In this document: one piece after another, positions 1-40,158 of the stretch
Layout: every line of letters starts with the position of its first letter
Position numbering within the stretch: position 1 is the first letter of the stretch
Assembly: GCA_024229275.1 (NCBI GenBank)
Contig: JAAESQ010000908.1
Location: 1 to 64,000 of the forward strand
Origin: a bacterium
Lineage (GTDB): Bacteria > Acidobacteriota > Thermoanaerobaculia > Thermoanaerobaculales > Sulfomarinibacteraceae
Direction: 5' to 3'
Length of the DNA stretch: 64,000 bases
Position numbers and translations under genes: made by a program
Notes under the pieces: model-generated
The model's database searches: none
What the model was told of the DNA's origin: nothing
What the model saw: the letters and a program-made list of their open reading frames with translations, nothing else

Positions 1-306
1 CCACCATCTCCTTCTTGGAGGATCAGCAACAGCGACATCCCCATCTTCTGTCCAGGCGTTGATCACCTTCCAGTCAGTGTTGGGGTGGAAGCCCTTCCAC
101 TCCCCCTTGGGGCTGCGGTGGAAGCCCCAGGCAGAACGGCCGAAGATGATGTTGGCTCCAGTGTCCTCGTAGTCGGTGCAGCGTTTGACCGGGTGCCGGA
201 AATTCTGCTTGAAGGCAGAGCAGCGTTCGAAGACGACTCCGACCTCATCTCCCCCGTCAGCCTTCTGGTAGTTCTCGCAGTGCGTGCAGAGGTTGTTGCT
301 GGTCAT
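1..306 (-). CDS. Cys-containing small protein, C-terminus off window (MTSNNLCTHCENYQKADGGDEVGVVFERCSAFKQNFRHPVKRCTDYEDTG...)
   Basis: Hand translation; open to window edge so absent from the ORF track; start overlaps upstream stop as ATGA (303-306); CxxC...C...C pattern. Confidence 0.7.
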   Translation of the reverse strand, partial: MTSNNLCTHCENYQKADGGDEVGVVFERCSAFKQNFRHPVKRCTDYEDTGANIIFGRSAWGFHRSPKGEWKGFHPNTDWKVINAWTEDGDVAVADPPRRRWW

Positions 307-626
307 ACGTACTTGCCGTACTCGTCGGAGATCATGTTGAAGAGGCAAGCAGCACGGATGGTCACCATCCAGCCGAAGCCCTTGCGGTCACGTCGAGGGT
401 GGCCGTCGTAGATGGGCTCGTTGGGGTCTGCCGGTTCGTCAGGCGCCATCCCAGAGAGGAGCCAGCCGATCTGATCGGCAGTATCTCGGTCGGCATCGGT
501 CTCCTGCACGTCCTGCCAGTTCTCGTACTCGCCACCAACGGCGTTGTAGGGAGAGAAGATGTGGGGGTTCTCGACACCAATGATGCCGAGAAGGTAGTCA
601 ACGTTGCGCTGCGGGGTCTGCCTCAC
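303..626 (-). CDS. Hypothetical early mini-protein (array member A)
   Basis: 107-aa ORF with ATGA overlaps to both neighbours. Confidence 0.7.
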   Translation of the reverse strand: MRQTPQRNVDYLLGIIGVENPHIFSPYNAVGGEYENWQDVQETDADRDTADQIGWLLSGMAPDEPADPNEPIYDGHPRRDRKGFGWMVTIRAACLFNMISDEYGKYV

Positions 627-850
627 AGGCCAATCTGGGACGAGGCAGGGAGACGATGGAATGCCCTCAGTTCCTCCTGGAAATTCTTGAGGGGGTCGTA
701 GTAGAAGGGAGCTTCATGCTCCACGAGCCACGACTTGGCGGGGTAGTCGATCAGGAGCAGCAGGCCCTGGACATAGGGAGTCTCCAGGAGATGCTTCTGT
801 TCGAGGAGGTCGGTGTAGGTCGCCTCTTGCGTCTCGTCGTCGTCACCCAT
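623..850 (-). CDS. Hypothetical early mini-protein (array member B)
   Basis: 75-aa ORF; start codon 6 nt downstream of a -10 hexamer. Confidence 0.75.
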   Translation of the reverse strand: MGDDDETQEATYTDLLEQKHLLETPYVQGLLLLIDYPAKSWLVEHEAPFYYDPLKNFQEELRAFHRLPASSQIGL

Positions 851-885
851 GCGTATAGGGTACGCATGCTTGCCGTATTTGTCAA
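848..885 (-). promoter_or_regulatory. Leftward promoter TTGACA-N17-TACCCT-N6-ATG with embedded ATGCTTGCCGTA (866-877)
   Basis: Minus strand reads TTGACAAATACGGCAAGCATGCGTACCCTATACGCATG. Confidence 0.75.
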
Positions 886-1007
886 CCCCCTACGGCGGCT
901 TTTATGGCCTCAGCGTTCGGCAGTTTTCCCGACTTCTTGGCAGCTTTGGGCTTCGGCTTCGAGACTGCCTTCTTGGCCTTCTTGGCGGCTTTCTTCTTGG
1001 CGGACAT
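882..1007 (-). CDS. 41-aa Lys/Ala/Pro-rich histone-H1-like peptide (MSAKKKAAKKAKKAVSKPKPKAAKKSGKLPNAEAIKAAVGG)
   Basis: Hand translation, below track length cutoff; ATGA overlap with ORF 1007..1240. Confidence 0.7.
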   Translation of the reverse strand: MSAKKKAAKKAKKAVSKPKPKAAKKSGKLPNAEAIKAAVGG

Positions 1008-1240
1008 CACAGTCTCCACATAGTTGGGCTCACTCCTCCAGTGTACCACTGCCATTTCACCGACCGTAGTTTAGGTGACCTCATCCCGGCGTCCACGACG
1101 AAGTTGGTGATGGCCTGCATGAGCTTGTCGGTGAACTCCGTGCGGAGCATGGGGTCCTCGATGGCTCCATTCTTTGGAGGAGGAGTGAAGACGATGAACT
1201 GGAAGACGTGGTCCCAGACCGGGTCGCCTTCTTCATTCAT
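1007..1240 (-). CDS. Hypothetical mini-protein (array member C)
   Basis: 77-aa ORF, overlapping neighbours. Confidence 0.7.
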   Translation of the reverse strand: MNEEGDPVWDHVFQFIVFTPPPKNGAIEDPMLRTEFTDKLMQAITNFVVDAGMRSPKLRSVKWQWYTGGVSPTMWRL

Positions 1241-1427
1241 TGGGAATCCCTGTGTGAAGTTCGATTGCAGCTTGGAGGGTGAGGTTGAACAACGGAGACG
1301 GAATCAACGGACCGCCATCGACAAACTCCCCGAAACAGATGTGGGAGACGTTGTACCAGATGTAGTGCTGGTGGTCCCCCACGGCGATGATGTCTTCAGC
1401 GCTGGCGGGCTGGCGGTCAATGGTCAT
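1233..1427 (-). CDS. Hypothetical mini-protein (array member D, MTIDRQPASAED...)
   Basis: Internal start of track ORF 1233..1550, trimmed to fit upstream gene. Confidence 0.6.
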   Translation of the reverse strand: MTIDRQPASAEDIIAVGDHQHYIWYNVSHICFGEFVDGGPLIPSPLFNLTLQAAIELHTGIPNE

Positions 1428-1665
1428 TCGTGGACTCCCAGGTGTTGAGGGCGTCCCATACGAGTCCAGAGATCCGTCGGCCAAGCTGAAAGGTTCCATC
1501 GGGATCGTACTCGGTCTTGTCCATGTCGCTCTCGGAGGGGTAGAGAGCAAGGAAGCAGATGTTGTCGAAGAGAGTCTGGCGGTCTGAGGTTGATTCCTGG
1601 AGTATGTGGAGACCGCTGGTGGTCTTGATTCCTCTGGGAGGCTCTCCCATTTCGATGTCCTTCAT
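1417..1665 (-). CDS. Hypothetical mini-protein (array member E, MKDIEMGEPPRG...LFDNICFLAL...VWDALNTWEST)
   Basis: Internal start of ORF 1417..1716; ATGA overlap at 1662-1665. Confidence 0.65.
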   Translation of the reverse strand: MKDIEMGEPPRGIKTTSGLHILQESTSDRQTLFDNICFLALYPSESDMDKTEYDPDGTFQLGRRISGLVWDALNTWESTNDH

Positions 1666-1934
1666 CGGGTGTCCTCGATGATGTAGACGTCCTGGTCGAG
1701 AGAGGGGAAGCCCCACTGGTCGTGGTCGAGATCCTGGAGGTCGAGGAACTGGTTGGCGGCGATGCGGAGAAGCTGTTGGATGTGATTGCCGTCGTGGCCG
1801 GCGTCGGTCTCAGCCCCCCAGTTTTCGACATCCTGATCGGAGTCCGCATTGAAGAGGAGGAGGTTCAGGTGGAGCCAGGGAGTGATGAAGCGGCCGACCG
1901 CCATTGCCTCTCTCATTGGATCGTAGATGTTCAC
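1662..1934 (-). CDS. Hypothetical mini-protein (array member F, VNIYDPMREAMAVG...)
   Basis: GTG start; overlapping neighbours. Confidence 0.6.
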   Translation of the reverse strand: MNIYDPMREAMAVGRFITPWLHLNLLLFNADSDQDVENWGAETDAGHDGNHIQQLLRIAANQFLDLQDLDHDQWGFPSLDQDVYIIEDTR

Positions 1935-2119
1935 CAGCGTTTCCTGCTTCCGGAGCGGCCGATGTGGTAGTGGTGGCCGAAGGCGCAGCGGTACTTGGTG
2001 AGGAAGCGTCCTCGGTGCTTCTTCTTCATGACGGTGATGGCCTCCTCGGCCAGTTCGACGGTCTTGTAGCACACCTTGCCGGTGCAGGCGTTGCGGCGAA
2101 TTCTGCGCCTGCTGCTCAT
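1931..2119 (-). CDS. Small zinc-finger-like protein (ACTGKVCYKTVELAEEAITVMKKKHRGRFLTKYRCAFGHHYHIG)
   Basis: Resembles small phage proteins of the TGK-x-x-Y...YRCxxxxxWHIG type; ATGA overlap. Confidence 0.65.
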   Translation of the reverse strand: MSSRRRIRRNACTGKVCYKTVELAEEAITVMKKKHRGRFLTKYRCAFGHHYHIGRSGSRKRW

Positions 2120-2340
2120 GTCCAGGGGACGTCCTTCCAGAAGCCCTTGAAGGTGCGGTTCAGGGGGGAGGCGATGCAGGTGTTCCAGACCTTGGACCTG
2201 ATGTTGTGGTGATACTGGCCGCAGGCCAGGACAGCGATGTGGAGGAAGAACTTCTGCTCGGGTTGGGAGCGGAAGTGGGGATTGACTCTGTCTAGGTTGT
2301 CTGTGTGGTCTGTGTCGAAGATGTGGCTGCTGGGGATCAA
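2116..2340 (-). CDS. Hypothetical mini-protein (array member H)
   Basis: TTG start overlapping upstream stop as TTGA (2337-2340). Confidence 0.5.
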   Translation of the reverse strand: MIPSSHIFDTDHTDNLDRVNPHFRSQPEQKFFLHIAVLACGQYHHNIRSKVWNTCIASPLNRTFKGFWKDVPWT

Positions 2341-2624
2341 AGGGTCCTTCCGCAGGCACGGCAGTATTCGCCTTCTTTGTAGATGCCCTGGCAGAGGAGG
2401 CAGGCTGGGTCTTCGCCCCAGGCGACGAGGGCTTCGTGGAGGTGGATGGAGATGCATCCTGGGAGGGGGTTGAAGCGGTTGAGGGGTTTGGAGATGGAGG
2501 CACCGAGGCAGAGGAAGGAGAGCATCGCCCACTGGGAGTAGGGAGCTGGGGAACCGAGGTCGGGGTCGATGGGGGTCTTCATGACAGCCTCTGGTGGCTC
2601 TTGAAGATGGTTCCAGGAGGACAT
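2337..2624 (-). CDS. Hypothetical mini-protein with C-terminal CxxC...CxxC knuckle (array member I)
   Basis: MSSWNHLQ...PACLLCQGIYKEGEYCRACGRTL. Confidence 0.6.
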   Translation of the reverse strand: MSSWNHLQEPPEAVMKTPIDPDLGSPAPYSQWAMLSFLCLGASISKPLNRFNPLPGCISIHLHEALVAWGEDPACLLCQGIYKEGEYCRACGRTL

Positions 2625-2658
2625 TAGATGGCGATGCCTTTGATGGTGGTGGCTGGCA

Positions 2659-2841
2659 TCAGAGCTTCCAGTCTCCGATGGCGATCCACATGTAGCGCCT
2701 GAACTGCGTGTCGATGTTCTCGTTCTTGGTGGTGGGACGGACACCAGTGAGAAGGAAGTGGACTCCGATGAGGTGGGCCACTTCTCCGTTGAGGCGGATG
2801 TTGGAGGCGTGGACGGAGGAGTGGAGTTCGGAGCGGATCAT
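2659..2841 (-). CDS. Hypothetical mini-protein (array member J)
   Basis: 60-aa ORF; ATGA overlap with 2838..3062. Confidence 0.65.
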   Translation of the reverse strand: MIRSELHSSVHASNIRLNGEVAHLIGVHFLLTGVRPTTKNENIDTQFRRYMWIAIGDWKL

Positions 2842-3062
2842 GGGAGGAGTTCCTCGATGGACTCGACGGCGTCCCAGAGGAGGTTGTAGGTGCCGTTGGC
2901 GAGCTTACAGGGACCAGTGATTTCTTCGCCTGGGCGCTCGTACATGAAGTCCTGGTTGGGGTCATTGCGGGAGGAGCGGTTGAGGAGCAGGTAGGCGAAG
3001 TTGTCGAAGAGGTAGTAGCCCTGATTGAGTTCATCGAGGTTCATGAGGTGGTCGTCGTTCAT
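2838..3062 (-). CDS. Hypothetical mini-protein (array member K, ...YYLFDNFAYLLL...LLWDAVESIEELLP)
   Basis: Internal start of ORF 2838..3587; adjoins the stop of 3062..3229. Confidence 0.65.
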   Translation of the reverse strand: MNDDHLMNLDELNQGYYLFDNFAYLLLNRSSRNDPNQDFMYERPGEEITGPCKLANGTYNLLWDAVESIEELLP

Positions 3063-3229
3063 CAGGCGGGGGGTCCAGGAGGATTCCAGAGGCGCTCCAG
3101 GCTCACGATGGCGTTCCAGATGGAGTCTTCGGTGCCTGTCTCCCATGCAGTGCAGCCGAGGAGCATTTCGAGATGTTCGTAGACTGCGCCTGCGGAGTCC
3201 CAAGCAGGGGCTGAGGAGTGTGGGTTCAT
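3062..3229 (-). CDS. Hypothetical mini-protein (array member L, MNPHSSAPAWDS...SIWNAIVSLERLW)
   Basis: Start codon 6 nt after -10 TACAAT. Confidence 0.65.
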   Translation of the reverse strand: MNPHSSAPAWDSAGAVYEHLEMLLGCTAWETGTEDSIWNAIVSLERLWNPPGPPA

Positions 3230-3268
3230 GGGTAGATTGTAGGGGGTGCTTGGTGCTATGGCAAGCAT
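3227..3268 (-). promoter_or_regulatory. Leftward promoter TTGCCA-N17-TACAAT-N6-ATG overlapping ATGCTTGCCATA
   Basis: Minus strand ATGCTTGCCATAGCACCAAGCACCCCCTACAATCTACCCATG. Confidence 0.7.
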
Positions 3269-3294
3269 GTTTTGAAAGTGGTTGTGGGGCAGAG

Positions 3295-3474
3295 CTACGA
3301 AGGGTTTGGCGGGTCGTGGAGGTCGAGGAGATCGGCAACACCCTGCCAGAAGGATGGAGTGCTGGACATGCGGAAGATGGGATTGGAGTAGATGTCTGGA
3401 GGGTCGAGGTCGAGAGAAAAGAGCAGGTAGAGAACGTGGTAGCGAGCGTAGCGGTAGTCTCCTGCTGAGGACAT
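3295..3474 (-). CDS. 59-aa mini-protein (array member M, MSSAGDYRYARYHVLYLLFSLDLDPPDIYSNPIFRMSSTPSFWQGVADLLDLHDPPNPS)
   Basis: Hand translation; just below the track cutoff; directly downstream of an ATGCTTGCCGTA site (3477-3488). Confidence 0.6.
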   Translation of the reverse strand: MSSAGDYRYARYHVLYLLFSLDLDPPDIYSNPIFRMSSTPSFWQGVADLLDLHDPPNPS

Positions 3475-3568
3475 GCTACGGCAAGCATATCATGGAAAGT
3501 GGTGCGGTTGGGGGAGGTAGTAGCTATTTGCACCGGAAATCGGACTCCGGTTCCAGGGGCGGGGGGAC

Positions 3569-6311: not shown

Positions 6312-6467
6312 CCCAACATCTGGTATGCCTGCCGTAAGCCCTACACAGTAAATAGTAGTGCTAACAATCCTGCTTGCCATGGTATAACTACCCTGGCTGT
6401 AGCGAGTTCCGAACGAATCCTACAGGGGGATAAACCCATAAAACCCCCTATCTACGAGAAAGGCCCC

Positions 6468-6683
6468 ATGAACACTGAGGACTACAACCTCATGCTCGAC
6501 ACCCTTAGAGGCATGGGCTTGGCTCTTCAAAAGCAGGTAGACAACCTGCAAGCCGAGAACCGCAACATCCGCCAACGCCTCACTTGCGTGGAGTCCAAGC
6601 TCATCCGCAATGGGCTTCACGACCGTCCAACCGAGGCTGACACCGACACTGTCAGCCTCCCCAAAGTCACACTGGAGGACTAA
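6468..6683 (+). CDS. Coiled-coil small protein
   Basis: GLALQKQVDNLQAENRNIRQRLTCVESK. Confidence 0.65.
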   Translation: MNTEDYNLMLDTLRGMGLALQKQVDNLQAENRNIRQRLTCVESKLIRNGLHDRPTEADTDTVSLPKVTLED

Positions 6684-10005: not shown

Positions 10006-10461
10006 TTGCCAGCACAGAGCAACCTCATCTACGGGATGCCCTTCACGGACATTCCCGATGATGTGGCCGAGAACATCAAGAAGGAGTACGACGAAGAGGG
10101 GGAGGTCAACTTCAACGTGATCCCCTTCGAAGCGTACAAGAACGTGGTCGCTGATTGCGAACGTCAGGGACTGCTTCACGTAGTTATCCACCCCAAGAAG
10201 AAAGAGAGGTACGGAGACTTCCAATTCGAAGTCCACATGGAGGGTGAGGCAGATGAGACATGGGACGATGCCTGGATAGGCGTGGCCCTCACATCTCGTT
10301 ACTCTCCTGTCCTGGCCGACACCAGTCCATCAGGAGGGTGCTGGCCTTTCCGCTTCGACAACCGAATGACGCGCATCCAGCAGATCGCGGCGTTCGTCAT
10401 CAACGAGCATGCTCCCGACTGGTTCAAGGGGGAGTGGATCGTAAAGGAGGCATGGTATTGA
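10006..10461 (+). CDS. Hypothetical protein
   Basis: 151-aa ORF, TTG start. Confidence 0.6.
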   Translation: MPAQSNLIYGMPFTDIPDDVAENIKKEYDEEGEVNFNVIPFEAYKNVVADCERQGLLHVVIHPKKKERYGDFQFEVHMEGEADETWDDAWIGVALTSRYSPVLADTSPSGGCWPFRFDNRMTRIQQIAAFVINEHAPDWFKGEWIVKEAWY

Positions 10462-16141: not shown

Positions 16142-16357
16142 GGCCATGCTTGCCACCACAAGGTGTGTGGTTCCAAGAAAAAATCTGTTGAAAACAAAGG
16201 ACTTAAAAGTAGGTACCGCGATTTGGAACCAGTATTTTTAGAGGGTGGTTCCAACAACGTAAGTATGCATGGATGAAAGGAATGTTAACCGAAGTCGGAA
16301 GACTTCGGAACCCCATAGATATTATATGGGGGTGGTTCCAATAGGGAGTTCCAAACA
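16142..16357 (+). promoter_or_regulatory. Structured non-coding region with GGTTCCAA repeats and hairpins
   Basis: No supported ORF; three GTGGTTCCAA copies, inverted TTGGAACC, CCGAAGTC-GGAA-GACTTCGG stem-loop. Confidence 0.6.
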
Positions 16358-16543: not shown

Positions 16544-16553
16544 CAACCCTCCA

Positions 16554-16593
16554 TGGTGCATTTAGGACAGCCCTGGTGCATTCAGGACGGGCT
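16554..16593. repeat. 20-bp imperfect tandem duplication TGGTGCATTyAGGACrGsCy
   Basis: 16/20 identity between 16554-16573 and 16574-16593. Confidence 0.8.
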
Positions 16594-16608: not shown

Positions 16609-16773
16609 CTACCGCTGGTCCTTCCAACGAGCCAGAGCCGCTACACGGGCAATTTCGCTTCTTCTTCGCTTGCTGAGCTTCTTGGCTCTCGCCTTCCCAC
16701 CTGCCTTCGAGACTCTCTTCCGGGTCTCAGTGTCCAGATGATCGGAGCCTGCTGATTCCGCTTGACTTCCCAT
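16609..16773 (-). CDS. 54-aa basic protein, candidate DNA-binding regulator (MGSQAESAGSDHLDTETRKRVSKAGGKARAKKLSKRRRSEIARVAALARWKDQR)
   Basis: Hand translation; matches the recurrent KARAxxLSxxxRSEIARxAAxARW small-protein pattern; opposite to surrounding genes. Confidence 0.75.
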   Translation of the reverse strand: MGSQAESAGSDHLDTETRKRVSKAGGKARAKKLSKRRRSEIARVAALARWKDQR

Positions 16774-16800
16774 GACGGCAAGCATACCATGTCCATCATG
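16762..16800 (+). promoter_or_regulatory. Promoter TTGACT-N17-TACCAT-N7-ATG with embedded GACGGCAAGCAT (16774-16785)
   Basis: Direct reading; same layout as the 848-885 promoter. Confidence 0.75.
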
Positions 16801-16896
16801 GAGAAGCTACTGAATCTTGCAACGGCCATCGGGGTCACCATCACCATCTGCTCAGTGGTGGCCAGCATCGGAGTCATCCTGCTGGCGTTCATCTAG
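16798..16896 (+). CDS. 32-aa single-TM peptide (MEKLLNLATAIGVTITICSVVASIGVILLAFI)
   Basis: Hand translation; start immediately follows promoter. Confidence 0.6.
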   Translation: MEKLLNLATAIGVTITICSVVASIGVILLAFI

Positions 16897-20658: not shown

Positions 20659-20723
20659 GATTCTGGTTTTGGCTCTCCGTTTTCTGCCTTTTAATGCTTG
20701 CCATCTCCGTCACAACCACATAG
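20637..20723 (+). CDS. 28-aa TM micro-ORF (MLGRHTLRFWFWLSVFCLLMLAISVTTT)
   Basis: Overlaps end of previous gene; strong hydrophobic segment. Confidence 0.4.
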   Translation: MLGRHTLRFWFWLSVFCLLMLAISVTTT

Positions 20724-27740: not shown

Positions 27741-27947
27741 TTGAATACATCACTGGTCATCAAGGAGATCCCAGAAGTTGACCGGCCTGATCTTCCACCC
27801 GGCCCCTCCTGGAAGTGTACCGAGTGTGGAGCCACCCTCCGGATGAACGAGCATCACTCTGCTGGCCGACACGTGGTTCTCTTCGTGAATCAGAGGCCCC
27901 GCCTCTACGTCGAGCCCAGAACGAAGACTCTACTTGACAGAAGCTGA
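27741..27947 (+). CDS. Small Cys protein
   Basis: KCTECGATLRM. Confidence 0.6.
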   Translation: MNTSLVIKEIPEVDRPDLPPGPSWKCTECGATLRMNEHHSAGRHVVLFVNQRPRLYVEPRTKTLLDRS

Positions 27948-27971
27948 TGCTTGCCGTAGATTGAGAACATG
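27934..27971 (+). promoter_or_regulatory. Promoter TTGACA-N17-TAGATT-N6-ATG with embedded ATGCTTGCCGTA (27947-27958)
   Basis: Sequence ttgacagaagctgatgcttgccgtagattgagaacatg. Confidence 0.85.
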
Positions 27972-29419: not shown

Positions 29420-31993
29420 CTACGCGAAGATGAACAGGATGTTGAATTCAGCGTTGTTGCTGAAGGCGTTGCCTACGTCACCGGCAGTGCCGTCGATCTG
29501 GAACCACGTCCCGTTGTCGGTGACTGCCGTGATGTCGAACACCATGAACTCCGCACCATCCGACTGATTCTGGAGGTAAAGCTGGTCCCCCGACGCTAGG
29601 GCGGAGATGATGTTGCTCGCGTCTCCACCCCGGAACGAGATGTCGCTGATGGCGATAGACGTGACGCTGGCGAGTGTGGCGTTGTTGTTGCGGAAGTCGC
29701 CGCTGCCAGGGTCGGCCATCGTCGTGCTGTTGTCGAACTTCCAGTGACCACTGAGCGGCGCTACAGCCCCCGGTGGGGTGGTAACACGCCAGCGAGAACT
29801 CGTCCCGTCGTAGCGCAGAGTCATCGAACGGTCGGCACCGAGGACAAAATTCGGAGCGATGCTCCCACCTTGGCCCGTAATAATACGGTTCGCGGCAACA
29901 CTGCCAGTGCCCTCGTTCTCTACGAGAAGGTTCTCCGTGCCGACGTTGGTCAACTCGAACGTGTCGCCATCCTGCACCGCTGTCGCGTCGATGCCCGTGA
30001 TCGTTGAGGTCGTGGCGTTGCCCGACACCCTGGCCCAGTACCGACCGTTGTTGTTCGGTGAGCCCGTGAGGAGCCCGGCCCAGTCGTCGTTGTCGCCTGC
30101 CGACAGTGCCGACGGATTGATCGGCGGGTACTGGATGCTTCCGCGCTGCTTGAACCTTCCGGTAACACGCAAGGCCGCCCGTTCGGTGACGGTGATGCCG
30201 GGGTTCGAGGTCGTCATGCCTCCGATGACGAGAGTGTCGAGGCTTGCGATTGATCCTGCCGTGTTGTCGAGGCTGATCTGGTTGATAGTCCATGCAGCCA
30301 CGTCGCTCATGGCGAAGGTGCCGATGTTGAGGTTGCCTCCCTGGGTCAGCAGGTAGTCCGACCAGCCGCCGGCAACGTCCGCAGTCCGGTTCGGAGCCAC
30401 GAAGAGGCCAACCTGATTCCCGATCACGCCTGTCTGCCCGAAGGCATAGCGGTCGAAGCCGAAGCGGATCTGGGTGTAGTTGGTCTCGGACACGCCGAAG
30501 CTCTCGGCCTCGAAGAGGTAGGTGGGCTTTCCGGAGACGACACCGAAGGCGAAGAAGAGATCCTCACCAACAGCCGGATTGAAGTCGAGCAATCCCGCCG
30601 TTCCGTCCCACTCAAGCCGGACATCTTGCCCTGTGCCGAACACCACCGCGCCAGCGTCGTAGAAGAGGGCGTCACTGTTGGCAAAAAGAGAGTTGGCCGT
30701 GCCGTTGTTGACGAGGAAGAACTTGTTGGTTCCGTCGTTGATGGCGGATCGCACCGCCACCCGCACGGCGTTGCCGCCAGCGTTGTTCAGCGTGATGTCG
30801 TCCACTTCCAGCCCGACGTAGGAACCAAGCCTTTCAGTGCCGAGGCTTTGCCCGAAGAGAGCCTGTCCTGGGTTCCGGCACCACACCCCTCGGATCGCAC
30901 CGAAGTTGATCGTGGACCCAGACACCGTGTTCCAGTTTGGCTGGACGGTCATCCCGGTCCAGTTGGTGCAGTTGAGCACCGCACCGTTCGCCGCTCCGTT
31001 CAGAGTGCTAGCGAAGTTGATTGCGGCAACCGCAGCCACAGTCCTCGTACCCGAGAACGGCTGGCGGATCGTCGCTCCGGCATTGAGGATGAGAGCCTGG
31101 AGCGGGTTGTTCCCCGCCCCTGGACCCGCCACCAGTTGAGGCAACGCCTGGAGCACGGTGTACGCCGCAAAGCCCGGGTTGGCGGCCGCCGTGATCGTGG
31201 GAGCACCACGGAAAGACTCGTAGATGAAAACGCTGGTGTTGAATGTCAGGTCCCCCGACATGTTCAACCCGCCACCGATGAAGTTGCCAGGGAAGCTCTC
31301 TGTAGCGTCGTAGAGGAAGGCGTACGCCTCACCGCTGGGTTCGTACGGCCCGAAGACCATCGGTGAGTTCACGCGGATGAGCCCCAGAGAGGCGTGATCT
31401 CTACCCTGGAGGAAGAGATCACCACCGCCACTAGTACCGCCGAAGGCACTCTGACCGCCGGTCCTCCCGGCCAGGAGGAAGTATTGGAGATGGTCGTCGT
31501 CCCCAAGCCCGCCGAGCCCACCATGGTCGATGCCAGCAGCCAGGACCGTACCCCTGATCTCGACCTCATCGCTTCCCGCGTCATCCGTCCCCGCCCACGA
31601 AAAGCTGGCGGTGTCCACGAAGTTGCCAGCCCCACGAACTCCGATGTCCACATCGTTCACTCGGAACAGGAGATCTCTCTTGTGGACGTGGTCACTCCGA
31701 GCCAGGAAGGAGGCTACACCTTCTGAGGTCGCAGCTCCCAGATCAACAGCAGTAGCCACCGCCACGAAATGGGCATGATCCGAAGCTGCCCAACCCGTGG
31801 CTTCTGTGCCGGGGCTGGAGACCGTGTCCGGAGCAATGACAGTGGGATTGAGGTTGTTGAACCCAGGAGGCAGCCCGTCAGACCATGCTTCCTTGCTCTT
31901 CCGGAGGTACTCCTCCAGGTCCCTGGAGACATCCTCCCATGGTCTCCGGGTCAGGCGCGGGATGTTCGCCATGACCCTACGACTGTTGGCCAT
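29420..31993 (-). CDS. Tail fibre/spike-like protein
   Basis: 857 aa, fibre-type DHAHF, DHVHKRDL and DHLQYF motifs; beta-rich repetitive body. Confidence 0.7.
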   Translation of the reverse strand: MANSRRVMANIPRLTRRPWEDVSRDLEEYLRKSKEAWSDGLPPGFNNLNPTVIAPDTVSSPGTEATGWAASDHAHFVAVATAVDLGAATSEGVASFLARSDHVHKRDLLFRVNDVDIGVRGAGNFVDTASFSWAGTDDAGSDEVEIRGTVLAAGIDHGGLGGLGDDDHLQYFLLAGRTGGQSAFGGTSGGGDLFLQGRDHASLGLIRVNSPMVFGPYEPSGEAYAFLYDATESFPGNFIGGGLNMSGDLTFNTSVFIYESFRGAPTITAAANPGFAAYTVLQALPQLVAGPGAGNNPLQALILNAGATIRQPFSGTRTVAAVAAINFASTLNGAANGAVLNCTNWTGMTVQPNWNTVSGSTINFGAIRGVWCRNPGQALFGQSLGTERLGSYVGLEVDDITLNNAGGNAVRVAVRSAINDGTNKFFLVNNGTANSLFANSDALFYDAGAVVFGTGQDVRLEWDGTAGLLDFNPAVGEDLFFAFGVVSGKPTYLFEAESFGVSETNYTQIRFGFDRYAFGQTGVIGNQVGLFVAPNRTADVAGGWSDYLLTQGGNLNIGTFAMSDVAAWTINQISLDNTAGSIASLDTLVIGGMTTSNPGITVTERAALRVTGRFKQRGSIQYPPINPSALSAGDNDDWAGLLTGSPNNNGRYWARVSGNATTSTITGIDATAVQDGDTFELTNVGTENLLVENEGTGSVAANRIITGQGGSIAPNFVLGADRSMTLRYDGTSSRWRVTTPPGAVAPLSGHWKFDNSTTMADPGSGDFRNNNATLASVTSIAISDISFRGGDASNIISALASGDQLYLQNQSDGAEFMVFDITAVTDNGTWFQIDGTAGDVGNAFSNNAEFNILFIFA

Positions 31994-34900
31994 TAGAGGG
32001 GGACCTCACCACCCTCGTGTCCTCTAGCCTTTCGAGTCAGCTCCCCTCGGAACCTCACCACCATGTTCCGACGGTACTTGTCGTAGAGAGCCTTCACCAC
32101 GTCCTTCTTGGTCTTGGCCCCCAGAGGTGCCACGTCCTCGTTGTCAGGCAACCTCATGAAGTTGGGATCCTTCACCAGCCGTGTGCCGATGATCTTCGTG
32201 GCCTGCGACTGGGCCTGCGCGAGCATCTTCCGCTGTTCCTCAGTGTAGTAGACCTTCACACCCTTGATGTAGGTGTACTTCTTCGGAGGAGTTGGAGGAC
32301 TCCCGATCTGGTCCAGCATCTGGGCAGCCATGGCAGTAGGATCCGTCCTGGCCTGGGACCTCGTGATGGGCCACGTCAGCCTCTCGATCCCACTCCCCGG
32401 CCGCAGCCTCTCCTCCCCAGTCGGAGTGTACTGCGGGGGCAGCGTCCTCGACAGGAACGGAACCTTCGCCAGGAACGCCTCCTTCGACATGGGCTCGGTC
32501 TGCCTGTACACAGGGTCCACCGCCTGAGCCAGATGCCCGAAGGGGATCGGCCCGATGGTGTTGGGAACCATGCTCATCTGCATCTGCTTGATCCACTGGC
32601 CTGCATACCGCTGAGGATCCGACATCGCCGTGGACAGGCCCTCCAGCCCAGAGAGGAAGGTCTTGTTCGTCAGGTTCTCTGTGACCGTGGAGAACAGCCG
32701 GGTCATCCCGGTCTGGACGCTGTCGAAGTCCCCTCTCTTGGCTCCCTCCGCGATGTCAGCCGCCATGCCCACGATGGAGGAGATGGGCTCCAGCCGCTGG
32801 TAGCTGAGGTACTGGTCCCCTGCCTTCACAGCGTACGCCCTCCAGCCGGTCTCCCTGAGGTTCGCCTCGTCCACCGGGTCGATCGGCCCTCCACCCGTGA
32901 TGTTCCCTTGCATGGCCTCGTTGATCAGCCACATCCCGGCCATGGTCCCCACCATGGGACGAGCCAGGAGGTCCATCCGCTCGGCCGGCGAGACCCTGTC
33001 CCACTTCGACGCCACCTCGAAGAACCCGGCAGGTGTCCTCCTCAGGGTCTCCACCGCGATGTTGTACGGGGTCCGTACGAACGGGAAGATCAACTGGAAG
33101 GGCTTGCCACCCGGCTTCCTGAGAGCACTCTGGAACGCCTTCATGAAGTCGGGAAGCTCGGTCTGGAAGGTCTCCTCCCTGGCAATCCGGAAGCCCTCGT
33201 CATGGATCGGGGCATATCTCGCTGCCGTTGCCGCATCGACAGCCTCACCCTTCGCCACCTTCAGGTACGTCTGCTCGATGTCCCGCACGTACCGCGCCGT
33301 AGCCCCGTAGATGTCCTCGCCCGGCTTCATGCTCCAGCCTTCCTCACCTGCCTTCAGCTTTCGGAAGACGTCCCGGTAGTAGAACTGAAGCTGGCTGGCC
33401 TTCTTGAACAGGGCGTCCTCAGCATTCATGCCCTTGAACATGAACCGCACGAACTCCCCAGTCTTCCCCTCGATGGCTCCCACCTGATGCATCATGTCCT
33501 CGGCCAGGGAACCCATCCGATCCACGTCGTGGCCCATGGTCTCCGAGCGCATGGCCAGCCCGTCCTTGAACGCCTGATACCACTCAGGCAGCGCAGCCCC
33601 TCCCCAGTGCTTCATGGCCATGCTGTTGAGCTTCATCTCGCCCCAGTGCCGCTCAGGAGCCCTGCTCTGGAGCTTGGAGTAGGCCCGCTCCATCCCGATG
33701 CTCAGGGTCCGCTCAAGCTCTCGGACTCCCTGCACCAGAGTATTAGAGGCGATGTTGGCCACCCTGGACTTCCACCCCAGAAGGAACGCCTTGTAAGCCT
33801 CCAATGCCTTGTCCACATTCGAGAACTTCAGCATCCTCCGGTACTCAGCCGCCCACTCGTCGGAGTCCTTGAGCCCCGACCTCACCTCGGCCCAGATCGT
33901 CATCAGGTGGTCGGTGGCCCTGTCAGCATCTGCTCTGCTGCCCTTGTACCGGGTCCTCATCTTCTCGAACAGGCCAGCTCTCATGTCCTGGAACATGGCA
34001 GCTTCGGGATCCTGCGCCCGACCGAGCTTCTTCGCCGCAGCCAGCGCCCGCCCTGTCTCCGTCAGAGGGTTGATGATCTTCGGCATGCCCTCGTTGAAGT
34101 CCCTCATGGCGGTCTCGTACGTCATCCTGGCTGCTTCCACCTGCTTCGTGGTGGACTCCCCACGGGCCAGCTTCATCTGCTCACCGAAGAACTGGGCTTC
34201 CCGGTTCGCCACGTTGCCAGCCAGATCAGCGCCCAGGATCTTGGCCATCACCACATCCCTGTCGGACAGGCCCCGGCGACCCTTTCCAAGGATCCCGTAC
34301 AGATCCTCCTTGCTCTTCACGGCCAGGAGGTTCTTCACCTCCCTGTCCAGTTGGTCCCACCCCCTCACATTGTCGGCCTTGAACTGCTTGCTCAGCTCCG
34401 GGATCTGACGGGTCATCCGACTGAACAGCGTGATCGCTGCCTTTGCCTGATCACTCAGCCCGTCGATGGTGCCCAAGTTGTACCGAGCCCACACACCACC
34501 ACGCGCCGCAGGTGTAGCTGACGCCAGTGCCGCCAGTTCATCCGGGTCCTTCTTCGCTGTCCTCCGTGCAATCTGGAAGGACATGTCCAGCGCACGGTTC
34601 ATCATCAGATCCCCAGGCTTCTTCGTCCGGGTCAGTTGATCGAGAATCTGATACGCCTCATCTAGGCTTCGGACTCCTGGCTCTGTGGCTTCGGCCGCAA
34701 TTCGTCTGCCCTCTGCTTCGCTTCTGGCAGCGACTCTGGTGTCTTCTGCGGCCTGCCGTGCATCAACACCCCGATCAAGGGCGGCTTCTCCCAGTCGTCC
34801 GGACGCCCTTCGGTGGCCCGGCGGTACAGACTCACCGCGTTGTAGCCCTGTGCCGATGCCAACTTCAGAATCCGCTGCACCTTGGAGATGACGATTCGAT

Positions 34901-37900
34901 GCGCTGGTAGCGCGGCCTTCAGCAAAGTGTACAGGAGCCTCTCGGACACCCGCTTCCCCTCTCCAACTCTCTCTTCCAAAGCTCCCGGCATGTGCGTTTG
35001 CCTCCCGGTATTCCGGCATCAGTTCATCGAGCCCGGTCAACCTTTCATTCAGCATCCCTTCGACGCTGTCCACCCACCGGTCGAACTGACCGTCGATCTT
35101 CGACAGATACCTGACGTCATCGGCCAGCCCATGGAACGTCCCAGTGTGTTCCAGCAGCCCATTGTGCAGGGCCTCATGGATCAGCGTCCCCACCAGTTCC
35201 TCCGCTGCAACTTTCGGGTTGTCGATGTTCCGGAACAGAACCTCCATGGGGTTCACGTAGATCTTCCCGTCAGCGTACAGACCACGGAGCCACGGCGAAG
35301 CAGTCACGCCAGCCACGGCAGCGTTCAGCCCCATGATCTCGTTCATCTCCTTGACGATGCTGTCCAGGCCATCTGTCATGCCCCTGCCTGTCGCTCGGTC
35401 CAGCCTCTTCTGGAACTCTGGACCATGCGCCTCATCGAAGTTCACCGCCACACCGGTCGCGTCCTCCACAGCGTCCCGGTACTGGGTGTCCCTGGCCAGA
35501 GCAGCTCTCGGGCTCAACTCGCCAACCGGCTTCGACAGAGCCTGCTGCTGTGCGATCCAGTCCTTCCTGGCCTTGGGCAGCCGTCCCACGGTGGGCATCA
35601 GCGATCCTCGATCCGCGAGGTACGCCTTCCCATCCACCGCCACCCACTGCCAGTCCCCCTTGTCGATCCAGGCTACCTTCCCGGCGTCAGCCAGTTCACC
35701 GATCTTCTGCTGGCGAGCCACCCAGGAGGATCCCACTGAGGCAGGCTGGTCGGCCGGGATCTTCAGGCCGTCGAGGTCGATCGCCAGAGGTGTGCCCCTC
35801 TGCTCGATCCTCCAGTTCCAGCCTTCCCTTGTTGTTCCGAGCCGGAGTGCTGGAAGCATGAAGCTCTTCGACTCAGGCACAGCATCCTCGATCTGGAGAT
35901 GGCGCTTCGCTGTGCCCACCTTCATTACCAGTTCTCGACCTTGCCGATCAGCCCCGATGTGGAATACGGAGTTGAACCCACCGTTCGCAATGCGGATCGG
36001 CTGAATGTCTGGGTCGATGCCGAACGCCTTCTGCACGCCGGTCAGCGCCTGCCTCACACCCTGGAAGTCACCAAAGATCTGATTGCCACCCCTCAGGTAC
36101 ATGGCAGCCATCATCTGGCGGATCGGTCCCTGGTCCGTGTGCCGTGCCGTCTCCCCGAAGGGGACGTCCCACTTGAACATGTTCTGCCCGCTCTGGGCGG
36201 CGTAGGACACCCGCTGGAGCAGATCGTCCACGGTCTTGTTCTTCCCGAGCATCATCCGAGCAGCACCCTTCAGGAGGTCCCACATCCCCCGCTGCCCCGA
36301 AGCATGCTGCGTCAGGTAGTCCTTGTAGGCCCTCATCTGCGCGGCCTTGGCTGTGACGTCAGTCGTCATCGCAGCCGTCCTGGGAGGCCCTGCGTTCACC
36401 GGGTACATCTGGGACTGAGCGTTCTCGGTCAGCGTCCCTGGTCTGCCAAGGATCCCGTCTCTCCTGAGCTTGGCAACCTGAGCCTCGAAGTCCGGGAGCA
36501 ACTGGAGGGGGATCTCCACCGACTTCACACCCCGGCGGCTGGCGTCCCTCATGAAGTCGTCCAGGTTGTTCTCCCCACGACCTCCAAGAATGGTGATCCG
36601 CTCACCCTTCGAATCCTCGGCAGCTTCGAAGTACACCCTCCGGTTCCCAGGAAGCTCCACGCCCGAATACTTCTTGCCGTTGGGGAACCTCTCTCCCAGG
36701 TTCCCTTCGAAGTTCGGCTTGTAGCTCTTCGTCTTTGCGATGGGCAGCAGGCCACCGAGCCGAGCTTCCGCAGCTTCCTTGGCCCTCGCCCCGGCCACCT
36801 TCGTCTTGATGTCGAGGGCACCTTCCAGCTTCACCTGGGTCGCTGCGCTGGTCTCCTTGAACCGAGCCAGCACCTCCTCGATGACCTTGCCCTTGCCCAT
36901 GCTCTTCGACAGGCCGGCCCACTGCCTCAGGTTCTCGATGGCTGGCACGGCTCCCTTGAGCCGGCCCTTGCCCCAGATCTTGGCGCTGTCCCCTGCCTGC
37001 CACGCCGACCACATCCGCTTGAAGCCAGCCACGAAGTCATCATCGAAGGTGATCTCGTCCAAGCTCTTTCCGGAGAGGAAATTCCTGAAGAACGAGTCTG
37101 CCGCAGTCTCAAGCTCATGGGCGACCTTGGCGTTCGCATCCTTCAACCCGAGCAGGCGGTCATGGACATCCTTCATGGCCGTCAGCTTGTTCCTGGGATA
37201 CCCAGCACCCCAGATGAAGTCGCCGAGGGCCTTTCCGTCCAGCCCTTCCTGCACGCCCTCGATGTACTTCACCAGATCAGGCCGATTGACCCACCGGTCC
37301 TTGTACTTCAGGGCCTCCCTCGGCATGTCCTCCACAAGCTGGCCGATGTTCTCCTTGCCCTGTCGTGCAGCCAGTTCCTGGTACGGATCCCTGGCATCAG
37401 GATCCTTCAGTGTGACCGACGTGTCGGCCTCCACCTCCATGCCCTCTTCCGTCACCGGACGCTGAAGCTCCTTCAGACGCTTCACCTTCGTGCGGTCCCG
37501 CATCGTGGCGTACAGCGTGTTCAGCGCGACCCCGTCCTCAGCAGACAGGTCCAGCCGGTTCACGGCCTCAGCATGGGACAACCCCTCCTCCCTGATGGAG
37601 GCGTACTCCTGGAGTCCTTCCCTGCCGATGGGATCACCCTTGTACCGAAGGTCGATCTCGTCGGCTTCCTCGATCACCTCTGAGATGGGCCGGCGGAAGA
37701 CCTCTGTCTGACCCTTCAGAATGTCCTTCGCTCGCGCCTTCCCGGTCCCCTTCACCAGCTTGTCCAGGGCATCCGTCATCTTGGCGATGGCCTGTTCCTC
37801 GGTTCCCTCGTCCAGGAACCGTTCCATCAGCGTCGGCAGGGTGACCTTCTCGCCGTCGATGGTGAACTTCCTGCCCTGGGTGAGCTGCTTCCAGATCTGC

Positions 37901-40158
37901 TCCACACCCGAAGCAGTGGCATCCCTGACCCTGTCAGGCACACCCTCAGCAGTGTTCCTCCGCATCACGTCTCCCAAGGAGTTGATGATCCTCGGGTCGA
38001 TGTCGGGGATCGCAGCCGTCAGTTCCATGCGCCGCCTGACAGCCTGGACCAGTCCCTTCTGGAGAGCCGCCCTGTCCTTGGTCTCCCAGATCTCCTTGAC
38101 CTTGTCGATCCCACCAGCGTCCACGATCTCCACCTCACGGGGGGAGTTGCGGATGTTCTTCTGGGCAGCCTCGTGCTGCGTGCGGAATGCCTTCTCCTCG
38201 TCAGTGAGGGGCCGCTCCTTTGCGTCCTTCAGGATCTGACGGTACTTCTCCCTGCCTTCCTTGACGGCCTCCAGGTCTGTCTCCACCTCCTTGAGGCGCT
38301 TCCTGAACGCAGGACTGTCCACGAGACCCTTCCGCAGGCGCTTCAGATCCCGCATCCTTCCCACTTCTTCGCTCAGAGTCTGGAGTGCCAGCCTCAACAG
38401 GGGTTCCTTCGCCCCGTGCTTGATGGTCAGTTCCTGGATGTCCAGCGACAGCCGGTCAGCAGCCTCGTCAATCCCAGCGGTGACCTCCGGGGTGTCCATG
38501 GCTGGATCGGTCTCAGCAAGTTCCTGGCCTCTCTCCAGGGCCTCCACCTGCGCGGGATCCTTCCCCTTGCCCATGATGGGCTCAGCAGGTTCACTCACCT
38601 GTCGGGTGACCACCTTGCCCTCGGGGATCTCGACCCTCTGCCCTGGCTTCCCTGCCTCCGTGGGCTTCAGCGTGACCTCGTAGGGCTCCTCGGCCACCAC
38701 CTCCACTTCCTGAGCAGGAGGCCGGCGAATCTCCCCCTCTTCAGGCAGAGGCTCAGCCTCCAGCCCCTCTTCGAAGGTCCGGGGCTTCTGCTCCATGGTA
38801 GGAGGCTGCACTTTCTCTGGGGCCACCTCAGGCAGAGCAGCAAGCTGCTCATCCACCTGACGGACCTCGGCCTCGATCTGTGGTCTCTCCCTTCCTGGTC
38901 GCGGCCTCTCATCGAGAAGCTGCTCCCGCTGCAACTCCAGGCGCTGTCGCTCCTGGAGGACCTCCTGCGTGGTACGAACCCCCGAAGGCTCCGGAGCAGG
39001 AGGGGTTGGCTCGGTTCCAGGAAGCTCAGGTGGGAGAACCTCCGGGGGAACTTCTGTCACAACCTCAGGGGCTCTAGGTGGGAGCCCTTCTGGCTCAACA
39101 ACTTCCGGACGAATAGTTGTTGGTTCTGTTGTGACGTCTGGACCAATAGGCAGCGGTTCGGCTGCTGCTTCAGGTCGGATCTCCTCGGGCAGGATCTCAG
39201 CCGTGGGGAGGGGAGCCTCCTCTGGGATGATCTCTGCTGTCGGCAGGGGCTGGCCCTGTGCCTCAGGCCGCATCTCCTCTGGGAGGATGTCGGCCATGGG
39301 AAGCTCGCCACGGTCGGCTGCCAGGGCGGCATCCACAGCGGCCGGGTTCTGCTTCCTGATGGCCGCCTCCAGCATCTCGTCGGCCTTGAAGGTGTCGAAT
39401 ACGCCCTTCCCGATCAGGCTCGCCAGACCGGCCAGGAGAGCCCCGGAGGCCCCCTGAGTGGCTGCTTCCCCGTACTTGCCCTCCTGAGCCAGCCTCCAGG
39501 ACTCTGAGGCTGCCTGACCCACACCTGTGGCGATCTCGGGGGCGTAGGCCACACCACCCAGGAGCATGGCCCTGTCGATGGGCTGAGCGTGCTGCCCCAT
39601 CCAGACCCCTGCCCGCTGCATGGCAGTCCCCGTCTGGATGGCCTTCTGGAGGTCGGGGGCTGCTGAAGCTGCCTGGAGAGTTCCTCTGGTCAGAGCCCTT
39701 CCACCGGCTCCTGCCGCCTTTGCCACGGCTGGAATCCCTCGCAGGGCTCCCAAGCCCACCTTGCCCAGAACAGCAGGGGTGTAGGTGGTGGGATCTCCAA
39801 GGGCATTCGCAATGATCCTGGAGACTGGTCCGGTGATCTGACCAGGGACGCTCTGCTTCACGCTCTCCGGGATCCACTGAGCAGCCACGTCACCCAGTCC
39901 CGGCAGGGCTTCGCCCCTCTCAAAGACGTTGGACTCTGGGGTGATTGCCAGATCCCTGCGGAGTTCCTGGCCGGCTGCCTCGTACGCTGCGGGATCCATC
40001 AGGCCAAGAAGTTGGCCACCGACGTTCCCGAGTGCCCCGAAGGTACCCTTGACGGGCTGGAAGACTGTGTCCCAGAGCCCAGGTTCCTCCCGCACAGGAA
40101 GCCCAAGATCTGCTCTCAACGAATTTAGGTCGAGACCTGTCCTCCAGTCATCAGCCAC
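31993..40158 (-). CDS. Giant (2721 aa) polyvalent/internal virion protein with kinase-like and zincin-like segments
   Basis: Single ORF; P/E-rich linker, NGGFNSVFHIG...VMKVG, HEALH, FPFVRTPYNI. Confidence 0.75.
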   Translation of the reverse strand: MADDWRTGLDLNSLRADLGLPVREEPGLWDTVFQPVKGTFGALGNVGGQLLGLMDPAAYEAAGQELRRDLAITPESNVFERGEALPGLGDVAAQWIPESVKQSVPGQITGPVSRIIANALGDPTTYTPAVLGKVGLGALRGIPAVAKAAGAGGRALTRGTLQAASAAPDLQKAIQTGTAMQRAGVWMGQHAQPIDRAMLLGGVAYAPEIATGVGQAASESWRLAQEGKYGEAATQGASGALLAGLASLIGKGVFDTFKADEMLEAAIRKQNPAAVDAALAADRGELPMADILPEEMRPEAQGQPLPTAEIIPEEAPLPTAEILPEEIRPEAAAEPLPIGPDVTTEPTTIRPEVVEPEGLPPRAPEVVTEVPPEVLPPELPGTEPTPPAPEPSGVRTTQEVLQERQRLELQREQLLDERPRPGRERPQIEAEVRQVDEQLAALPEVAPEKVQPPTMEQKPRTFEEGLEAEPLPEEGEIRRPPAQEVEVVAEEPYEVTLKPTEAGKPGQRVEIPEGKVVTRQVSEPAEPIMGKGKDPAQVEALERGQELAETDPAMDTPEVTAGIDEAADRLSLDIQELTIKHGAKEPLLRLALQTLSEEVGRMRDLKRLRKGLVDSPAFRKRLKEVETDLEAVKEGREKYRQILKDAKERPLTDEEKAFRTQHEAAQKNIRNSPREVEIVDAGGIDKVKEIWETKDRAALQKGLVQAVRRRMELTAAIPDIDPRIINSLGDVMRRNTAEGVPDRVRDATASGVEQIWKQLTQGRKFTIDGEKVTLPTLMERFLDEGTEEQAIAKMTDALDKLVKGTGKARAKDILKGQTEVFRRPISEVIEEADEIDLRYKGDPIGREGLQEYASIREEGLSHAEAVNRLDLSAEDGVALNTLYATMRDRTKVKRLKELQRPVTEEGMEVEADTSVTLKDPDARDPYQELAARQGKENIGQLVEDMPREALKYKDRWVNRPDLVKYIEGVQEGLDGKALGDFIWGAGYPRNKLTAMKDVHDRLLGLKDANAKVAHELETAADSFFRNFLSGKSLDEITFDDDFVAGFKRMWSAWQAGDSAKIWGKGRLKGAVPAIENLRQWAGLSKSMGKGKVIEEVLARFKETSAATQVKLEGALDIKTKVAGARAKEAAEARLGGLLPIAKTKSYKPNFEGNLGERFPNGKKYSGVELPGNRRVYFEAAEDSKGERITILGGRGENNLDDFMRDASRRGVKSVEIPLQLLPDFEAQVAKLRRDGILGRPGTLTENAQSQMYPVNAGPPRTAAMTTDVTAKAAQMRAYKDYLTQHASGQRGMWDLLKGAARMMLGKNKTVDDLLQRVSYAAQSGQNMFKWDVPFGETARHTDQGPIRQMMAAMYLRGGNQIFGDFQGVRQALTGVQKAFGIDPDIQPIRIANGGFNSVFHIGADRQGRELVMKVGTAKRHLQIEDAVPESKSFMLPALRLGTTREGWNWRIEQRGTPLAIDLDGLKIPADQPASVGSSWVARQQKIGELADAGKVAWIDKGDWQWVAVDGKAYLADRGSLMPTVGRLPKARKDWIAQQQALSKPVGELSPRAALARDTQYRDAVEDATGVAVNFDEAHGPEFQKRLDRATGRGMTDGLDSIVKEMNEIMGLNAAVAGVTASPWLRGLYADGKIYVNPMEVLFRNIDNPKVAAEELVGTLIHEALHNGLLEHTGTFHGLADDVRYLSKIDGQFDRWVDSVEGMLNERLTGLDELMPEYREANAHAGSFGRESWRGEAGVREAPVHFAEGRATSASNRHLQGAADSEVGIGTGLQRGESVPPGHRRASGRLGEAALDRGVDARQAAEDTRVAARSEAEGRRIAAEATEPGVRSLDEAYQILDQLTRTKKPGDLMMNRALDMSFQIARRTAKKDPDELAALASATPAARGGVWARYNLGTIDGLSDQAKAAITLFSRMTRQIPELSKQFKADNVRGWDQLDREVKNLLAVKSKEDLYGILGKGRRGLSDRDVVMAKILGADLAGNVANREAQFFGEQMKLARGESTTKQVEAARMTYETAMRDFNEGMPKIINPLTETGRALAAAKKLGRAQDPEAAMFQDMRAGLFEKMRTRYKGSRADADRATDHLMTIWAEVRSGLKDSDEWAAEYRRMLKFSNVDKALEAYKAFLLGWKSRVANIASNTLVQGVRELERTLSIGMERAYSKLQSRAPERHWGEMKLNSMAMKHWGGAALPEWYQAFKDGLAMRSETMGHDVDRMGSLAEDMMHQVGAIEGKTGEFVRFMFKGMNAEDALFKKASQLQFYYRDVFRKLKAGEEGWSMKPGEDIYGATARYVRDIEQTYLKVAKGEAVDAATAARYAPIHDEGFRIAREETFQTELPDFMKAFQSALRKPGGKPFQLIFPFVRTPYNIAVETLRRTPAGFFEVASKWDRVSPAERMDLLARPMVGTMAGMWLINEAMQGNITGGGPIDPVDEANLRETGWRAYAVKAGDQYLSYQRLEPISSIVGMAADIAEGAKRGDFDSVQTGMTRLFSTVTENLTNKTFLSGLEGLSTAMSDPQRYAGQWIKQMQMSMVPNTIGPIPFGHLAQAVDPVYRQTEPMSKEAFLAKVPFLSRTLPPQYTPTGEERLRPGSGIERLTWPITRSQARTDPTAMAAQMLDQIGSPPTPPKKYTYIKGVKVYYTEEQRKMLAQAQSQATKIIGTRLVKDPNFMRLPDNEDVAPLGAKTKKDVVKALYDKYRRNMVVRFRGELTRKARGHEGGEVPL

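What the first reader, a model, noticed from the sequence alone, without database searches (positions are those of the whole stretch)
16609..16800. Ultra-compact divergent switch with a 54-aa basic protein missed by the ORF track
A leftward CDS (16609-16773) sits alone within the rightward arm. Its ATG is 24 nt from the rightward ATG at 16798. That gap contains the 12-mer (16774-16785) and the rightward -10 (TACCAT). The rightward -35 (TTGACT, 16762-67) lies inside the leftward CDS, and the minus strand reads TATGCT-N7-ATG, a possible leaderless promoter. The product carries KARAKKLSKRRRSEIARVAALARW, a recurrent small basic protein pattern of unclear function. Hypothesis: it is the autoregulated protein that binds the genome-wide 12-mer.
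Basis: partly seen in the sequence, partly recalled or inferred. Interest (0 to 1): 0.85.

Follow-up and report, generated by a model that had tools for sequence, protein, structure and literature searches.

The report
Phage divergent switch with tiny basic protein
A bacterial virus carries a real, conserved 54-58-residue basic protein gene packed head-to-head against another small gene, at one of about nine copies of a short DNA signal that mostly sits on its promoters; the signal looks like a viral on/off site, but whether this tiny protein is what binds it is unproven.

Summary
The window is 95% of a 67-kb tailed-phage contig, with repeated ends, in an Acidobacteriota-like bin. ORF 16609-16773(-) (54 aa; 58 aa from an ATG inside the 12-mer) faces a 32-aa membrane-peptide gene (ATG 16798) across 24 nt, and a TTGACT-N17-TACCAT promoter spans the gap and the start of the leftward gene. 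The gene is genuine: a sister phage keeps it in the same place and orientation at 83% identity, with 17 synonymous versus 8 amino-acid codon changes.

The 12-mer is phage-specific and strongly tied to sigma70-like promoters, in either orientation and at different offsets. In the sister phage one copy is a perfect palindrome. This fits an operator better than a sigma-specific element. Several promoters put the start codon 6-7 nt after the -10 box, predicting leaderless mRNAs.

The protein is not a lone oddity. Its GGKARAKKLS..RRSEIARxAAxARW segment is the stand-alone form of the N-terminal module of P63C-domain proteins (PHROG 2384), whose C-terminal part matches phage anti-repressor Ant. That supports a role in transcription control, but nothing shows 12-mer binding: no HTH, a poor fold model, no motif near other family members. 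I put 'this protein binds the 12-mer' at about 0.3.

The parts
16609..16785 (-). Small basic 'KARAK' protein gene: 54 aa from ATG 16773, 58 aa from ATG 16785; pI about 11.5
   Evidence: syntenic homologue in L024:4456-4623 (-), 83% identity over 54 aa; 17 synonymous vs 8 nonsynonymous codon differences, 18 of 33 base changes at third positions
16774..16785 (-). Copy of the 12-mer (ATGCTTGCCGTC, 1 mismatch), inside the spacer of the rightward promoter
   Evidence: the core ATGCTTGCC is conserved at the same place in the sister phage (L024:4623)
16762..16790 (+). Rightward promoter TTGACT-N17-TACCAT, 7 nt before ATG 16798
   Evidence: the sister phage has TTGACT-N17-TACATT-N7-ATG despite a 3-nt deletion in between
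16798..16896 (+). Rightward gene: 32-aa hydrophobic membrane peptide
   Evidence: ORF list; related ORF in L024, MGKPHNLATEVG...LLAFVPGR; an alternative ATG at 16789 has no counterpart in the sister
16781..16786 (-). Possible leftward -10 (TATGCT), 7 nt before ATG 16773
   Evidence: Sequence; the sister has TATTAT-N7-ATG; no good -35 in either
16146..16154 (+). Second ATGCTTGCC copy, inverted relative to the first, about 640 bp away; no promoter found on it
   Evidence: pair I3; conserved in the sister at L024:3987; no promoter above shuffled flanks
866..877 (+). 12-mer inside the spacer of leftward promoter TTGACA-N17-TACCCT, 6 nt before ATG 850
3257..3268 (-). 12-mer (1 mismatch) providing the -35 of TTGCCA-N17-TACAAT, 6 nt before ATG 3229; imperfect palindrome
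   Evidence: the sister has a perfect palindrome with TTGCCA-N17-TATAAT
3477..3488 (-). 12-mer just upstream of ATG 3474 (-); promoter unclear
6371..6378 (+). TGCTTGCC followed by ATGG and TATAAC; a degenerate copy (ATGCCTGCCGTA) at 6325
   Evidence: the sister has a tandem pair with TTGCCA-N17-TATAAA
20694..20702 (+). Motif providing the -35 of TTGCCA-N17-TAGACT, upstream of ATG 20736
27947..27958 (+). 12-mer inside the spacer of TTGACA-N17-TAGATT, 6 nt before ATG 27969

Best explanation
This is one node of a phage-encoded early transcription circuit. The 12-mer (core TGCTTGCC) is an operator lying across or inside sigma70-type promoters that host RNA polymerase can read. A protein bound there would block, or less likely help, the polymerase at about six to eight early promoters, several of which make nearly leaderless mRNAs. 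At 16.6-16.9 kb one operator sits between the leftward KARAK gene and the rightward membrane-peptide gene, so a single binding event would set both. The KARAK protein is the best single candidate for the binder or for a partner of it, which would make the locus autoregulated. Shown here: conservation of the gene, motif enrichment, and association of motif and promoter. Inferred: that the motif is an operator, and that the promoters are active and leaderless. Guess (about 0.3): that the KARAK protein is the factor that binds.
For: Gene: kept at the same place and orientation in the sister phage at 83% identity, mostly by synonymous change, while several neighbouring small genes are below 50% or not found. 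Motif: 6 matches versus 0.07 expected; 8 of 10 TGCTTGCC cores lie wholly in non-coding DNA although 88% of the genome is called as coding; no enrichment in the bin. Promoter link: with the motif held fixed and its flanks shuffled, the summed promoter mismatch over 12 sites in two phages is 35.5 versus 57.8 +/- 2.5, and none of 500 shuffles reached it. Four of six strict promoters in the whole 67 kb lie on the motif, a fifth has a degenerate copy beside its -10, and both strict promoters in the sister contig lie on it. Orientation and offset vary (-35, spacer, near -10) and one copy is a perfect inverted repeat, as expected of an operator. Protein: the module heads P63C-domain proteins whose C-terminal part matches PHROG 'anti-repressor Ant'; no other recognised DNA-binding regulator or integrase was found among 59 early proteins.
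Against: No HTH, ribbon-helix-helix or other known DNA-binding fold was found for the protein, and the model is only a helical hairpin with pTM 0.38. Family members in other phages are not accompanied by this motif. Two motif copies (16146 here and its counterpart in the sister) have no promoter. Most copies are one-sided, which a dimer would not favour. Only two independent phage lineages were available. All promoters are predictions.
Confidence: 0.45

Rival explanations
1. The 12-mer is an operator as above, but a different phage protein binds it; for instance the conserved coiled-coil-like protein 6468-6683 or one of the unannotated left-arm proteins. The KARAK gene is merely one of the regulated early genes.
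For: 6468-6683 is conserved (62%) and lies just downstream of a motif copy; most early proteins have no annotation; no binding evidence exists for KARAK.
Against: None of these candidates has a recognised DNA-binding domain either; the KARAK gene is the one bracketed by two conserved, inverted motif copies in both phages.
Confidence: 0.35
2. The KARAK protein is a general nucleic-acid binder (nucleoid- or KGG-like) that coats DNA or RNA without recognising the 12-mer.
For: pI about 11.5, no DNA-binding fold, family spread across phages, plasmids and bacteria without a shared motif; weak KGG/LEA_5 resemblance of relatives; one relative is annotated 'RNA-binding protein'.
Against: KGG and LEA_5 scores are below the curated cut-offs and the target itself has none; the placement inside the conserved divergent operator region is then unexplained.
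Confidence: 0.25
3. The 12-mer is a promoter element for a phage-modified polymerase, as the T4 MotA box (TGCTT core) is for middle promoters, rather than a repressor site.
For: Shared TGCTT core with the MotA box (recalled from general knowledge); in 3268, 20694 and the sister's 7015 the motif occupies the -35 position.
Against: Distance to the -10 varies from about 1 to 18 nt and the motif occurs in both orientations; several promoters also have a good TTGACA of their own.
Confidence: 0.12
4. The 12-mer is a host regulator's site picked up by the phage.
For: Phages often carry host operator sites (general knowledge); the host's own factors are unknown.
Against: No enrichment in the bin's 8.6 Mb: 45 versus 42 reversed controls, 6 of the 45 in the phage itself. 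Caveat: the bin may not be the host.
Confidence: 0.05

Closest known systems
P63C-domain proteins (PF10546; PHROG 2384)
   Same: The N-terminal about 33 residues are the same module (GG.ARA..LS.ERRSEIAR.AA.ARW); PHROG 2384 hit E=1.6e-5, hhalign 96% to a P63C protein
   Different: The roughly 300-residue C-terminal part with the P63C domain is absent; this is a stand-alone module
Stand-alone small proteins with the same module in genomes of the bin's class and in IMG/VR contigs
   Same: Same basic C-terminal segment; in two genomes a stand-alone gene lies next to a KARAK-P63C fusion gene, convergent with it
   Different: Those often have a longer N-terminus (MPKRS...KNPAAVALGRLGG); no convincing 12-mer beside the 21 IMG/VR members checked
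Cluster A mycobacteriophage operators/stoperators (L5, TipsytheTRex)
   Same: Short, mostly asymmetric sites repeated through a phage genome, some in promoter regions, others in intergenic gaps (PMC9283540)
   Different: L5-type sites number over twenty, are 13-mers oriented with transcription, and are bound by a 183-residue two-domain repressor; here about nine cores in both orientations, one perfect palindrome in the sister, and no such repressor found
Arc/CopG-type small phage repressors (recalled)
   Same: About 50-residue proteins can be autoregulating repressors
   Different: No ribbon-helix-helix; the model has no strand
KGG repeat proteins (PF10685)
   Same: Glycine-pair plus basic helix pattern; relative L007 scores E=0.002, below cut-off
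   Different: The target itself has no Pfam hit

Membership tests
P63C-domain protein family (PF10546 / PHROG 2384) | N-terminal KARAK module | tested here: met
   PHROG 2384 E=1.6e-5 over residues 24-56, profile positions 6-38 of 338; hhalign to L171 protein prob 96%
P63C-domain protein family (PF10546 / PHROG 2384) | C-terminal P63C domain | tested here: not met
   No Pfam hit in the 58-aa protein; the ORF is too short to hold it
KGG / stress-induced bacterial acidophilic repeat (PF10685) | Pfam gathering score | tested here: not met
   No hit for the target; the one relative that hits is at 18.8 bits versus cut-off 20.4
Dispersed phage operator set (stoperator-like) | Same short site repeated in one phage genome above chance | tested here: met
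   6 vs 0.07; 8 of 10 cores non-coding
Dispersed phage operator set (stoperator-like) | Sites overlap promoters | tested here: met
   (35.5 vs 57.8 +/- 2.5); predicted promoters only
Dispersed phage operator set (stoperator-like) | Sites oriented with the direction of transcription | tested here: not met
   Both orientations relative to the promoter
Dispersed phage operator set (stoperator-like) | A repressor that binds the sites | not testable with these tools
   Needs protein-DNA binding assays
HTH or ribbon-helix-helix repressor | Recognisable DNA-binding domain | tested here: not met
   Pfam, NCBIfam, PDB sequence profile and Foldseek gave none; the model is low-confidence, so a new fold is not excluded
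T4 MotA-type middle promoter element | Fixed spacing between box and -10 | tested here: not met
   Spacing and orientation vary

The most novel reading that the evidence does not exclude
The stand-alone KARAK module is a minimal sequence-specific DNA-binding domain of a new type that autoregulates a divergent, leaderless promoter pair and controls a small phage-wide regulon through the TGCTTGCC operator; the same module would then be the DNA-reading part of P63C anti-repressor-like proteins.
Probability: 0.2. Interest if true: 0.8.

Novelty: new variant of a known kind. Interest (0 to 1): 0.52.

Why it matters
Many phage, plasmid and bacterial small proteins with the GGKARAKKLS..RRSEIAR pattern have no assigned function. 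This locus gives a concrete test case: a conserved gene sitting on a defined, repeated candidate target site, and a link to P63C proteins, whose other half resembles anti-repressors. If the protein binds the site, it would give a function to a widespread module and describe how this phage group times its early genes. If it does not, the operator set still points to an unknown regulator in this phage lineage.

Tried and rejected
GenBank phages (INPHARED): no match for the small protein or a relative. Searches for more close relatives by the ATPase, the exonuclease-like protein and a conserved pair alignment gave only the sister contig 3300001687_000534, plus one distant phage (25% identity) in which my check found no KARAK ORF. 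The palindrome search in IMG/VR returned the sister, its 98%-identical neighbour 3300027917_003053 (not an independent witness) and four unrelated contigs. Co-occurrence of KARAK genes with GCTTGCC in other phages: none convincing; L007 shows a look-alike TATGCTTGACGTG-ATG upstream of its KARAK gene, which I treat as chance. Rfam and terminator scans of the locus: nothing. A weak PDB hit to the HIF-1alpha basic region (E=0.015) was judged a composition match. A count of the leaderless pattern on loose promoters was not significant (4 found versus 0-5 in simulated sequence), so the leaderless reading rests on the motif promoters only. My simple coding-bias gene caller did not pick the KARAK ORF; conservation, not codon bias, is the evidence for it.

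Full report
WHAT IT IS PART OF. The window is bases 1-64000 of contig C907 (67,051 bp) in an 8.6-Mb, 1694-contig bin. The first 100 bases recur at 66,910, so the contig is a probably complete phage genome of about 66.9 kb. The early genes run leftward from about 4.6 to 0.3 kb and rightward from 4.9 to 28.7 kb; the structural genes run leftward from about 66.5 to 28.7 kb. The bin's RpoB is closest, at 66%, to Vicinamibacteria and other Acidobacteriota, so the host may be an acidobacterium; binning of phage contigs is unreliable.

THE OBSERVATION. It is correct in its coordinates, with three refinements. The 12-mer copy at 16774-16785 has one mismatch. The ORF has two possible starts (16773 giving 54 aa, 16785 giving 58 aa, the latter inside the 12-mer). 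And the motif is early-region-wide rather than genome-wide.

THE GENE IS REAL. A related IMG/VR contig, 3300001687_000534 (26 kb), is colinear over terminase, portal and both early arms. It carries the same leftward gene in the same place (L024:4456-4623), 83% identical over 54 residues, with 25 identical, 17 synonymous and 8 non-synonymous codons and 18 of 33 changes at third positions. Several small neighbours are far less conserved or not found. The rightward partner is a small hydrophobic peptide in both. In the sister, 3 nt are missing between the shared -35 and the start, yet TTGACT-N17-TACATT-N7-ATG is again found; an alternative promoter reading there scores equally.

THE MOTIF IS TIED TO PROMOTERS. 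Six matches at one mismatch or fewer compare with 0.07 expected. Eight of ten TGCTTGCC cores lie wholly in non-coding DNA, in a genome that is 88% called as coding. The best sigma70-like promoters overlap it: TTGACA-N17-TAGATT at 27934, TTGACA-N17-TACCCT at 866, TTGACT-N17-TACCAT at 16762, TTGCCA-N17-TACAAT at 3264, TTGCCA-N17-TAGACT at 20698; in the sister TTGCCA-N17-TATAAT at 7011 and TTGCCA-N17-TATAAA at 10304. Because TTGCC is inside the motif, I held the motif fixed and shuffled its flanks: the summed mismatch over 12 sites was 35.5 against 57.8 +/- 2.5, with no shuffle of 500 reaching it. Two sites (16146 and its counterpart in the sister) have no promoter. The sites come in both orientations and at several offsets, and one is a perfect inverted repeat. 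This is how an operator behaves, and it argues against a fixed-position promoter element. The bin itself shows no enrichment.

LEADERLESS STARTS. At 850, 3229, 16798 and 27969 the start codon follows the -10 by 6-7 nt. That predicts leaderless or nearly leaderless mRNAs. It is inferred from spacing only; a general count on loose promoters was not above simulated sequence.

THE PROTEIN. It has no Pfam or NCBIfam family. PHROG 2384 matches its C-terminal half (E=1.6e-5). Plasmid proteins with the same N-terminus (Deinococcus ficus, Acinetobacter larvae) are P63C proteins, match PHROG 2384 nearly end to end, and their C-terminal part matches PHROG 'anti-repressor Ant'. In two genomes of the same class as the bin, a stand-alone KARAK gene lies next to a KARAK-P63C fusion gene. 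Of 152 genomes of the class, 17 (the bin included) have the module, and 26 IMG/VR contigs do. A fold prediction gives a helical hairpin of modest confidence (pLDDT 73, pTM 0.38) with no PDB match.

HOW IT MOST LIKELY WORKS. An operator in the 24-nt gap would let one bound factor control both genes of the divergent pair, and the same factor would act at several other early promoters. The KARAK protein is the leading candidate for that factor or its partner: its gene is bracketed by two inverted, conserved motif copies, its module belongs to anti-repressor-like proteins, and no other regulator was recognised. Binding itself is untested; I give it about 0.3. The strongest rivals are another unannotated phage protein as binder, and a general nucleic-acid-binding role.

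RELATION TO KNOWN SYSTEMS. The nearest working analogue is the operator/stoperator set of cluster A mycobacteriophages, whose repressor binds an asymmetric 13-mer as a monomer (PMC9283540). The differences are both orientations, fewer sites, a palindromic version, and no such repressor found. By sequence the protein belongs with the N-terminal module of P63C proteins but lacks the P63C domain, so it is not filed as a P63C protein.

Noticed in passing
window 16166-16350: GGTGGTTCCAA / TTGGAACC direct and inverted repeats beside the promoterless 12-mer copy at 16146; the sister phage has the same repeats at G001:C1 19166-19436. Possibly a second operator or an origin.
   Followed up: partly
window 16551-16588: Two tandem 18-nt copies (CCATGGTGCATTTAGGAC, 89% alike) just downstream of the 61-aa gene.
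   Followed up: no
window 885-1007 (-): 41-aa lysine/alanine-rich histone-H1-like peptide (MSAKKKAAKKAKKAVSKPKPKAAKK...) ending just before the 12-mer promoter at 866.
   Followed up: no
G120 contig C49 (L167, L171) and G150 contig C25 (L170, L174): Stand-alone KARAK gene and KARAK-P63C fusion gene about 1 kb apart and convergent, in two genomes of the bin's class; a possible two-gene module.
   Followed up: partly
window 300-3500 (-): Row of small, mostly acidic proteins with similar length and layout; blastp finds no clear paralogy.
   Followed up: partly
contig C907 64578-64621: TTGACA-N17-TATCTT promoter (-) with a degenerate motif copy (2 mismatches) just after the -10.
   Followed up: partly
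window 31993-40158 (-): Single 2721-aa ORF in the structural arm, very long for a 67-kb phage (possibly a virion-associated giant protein).
   Followed up: no
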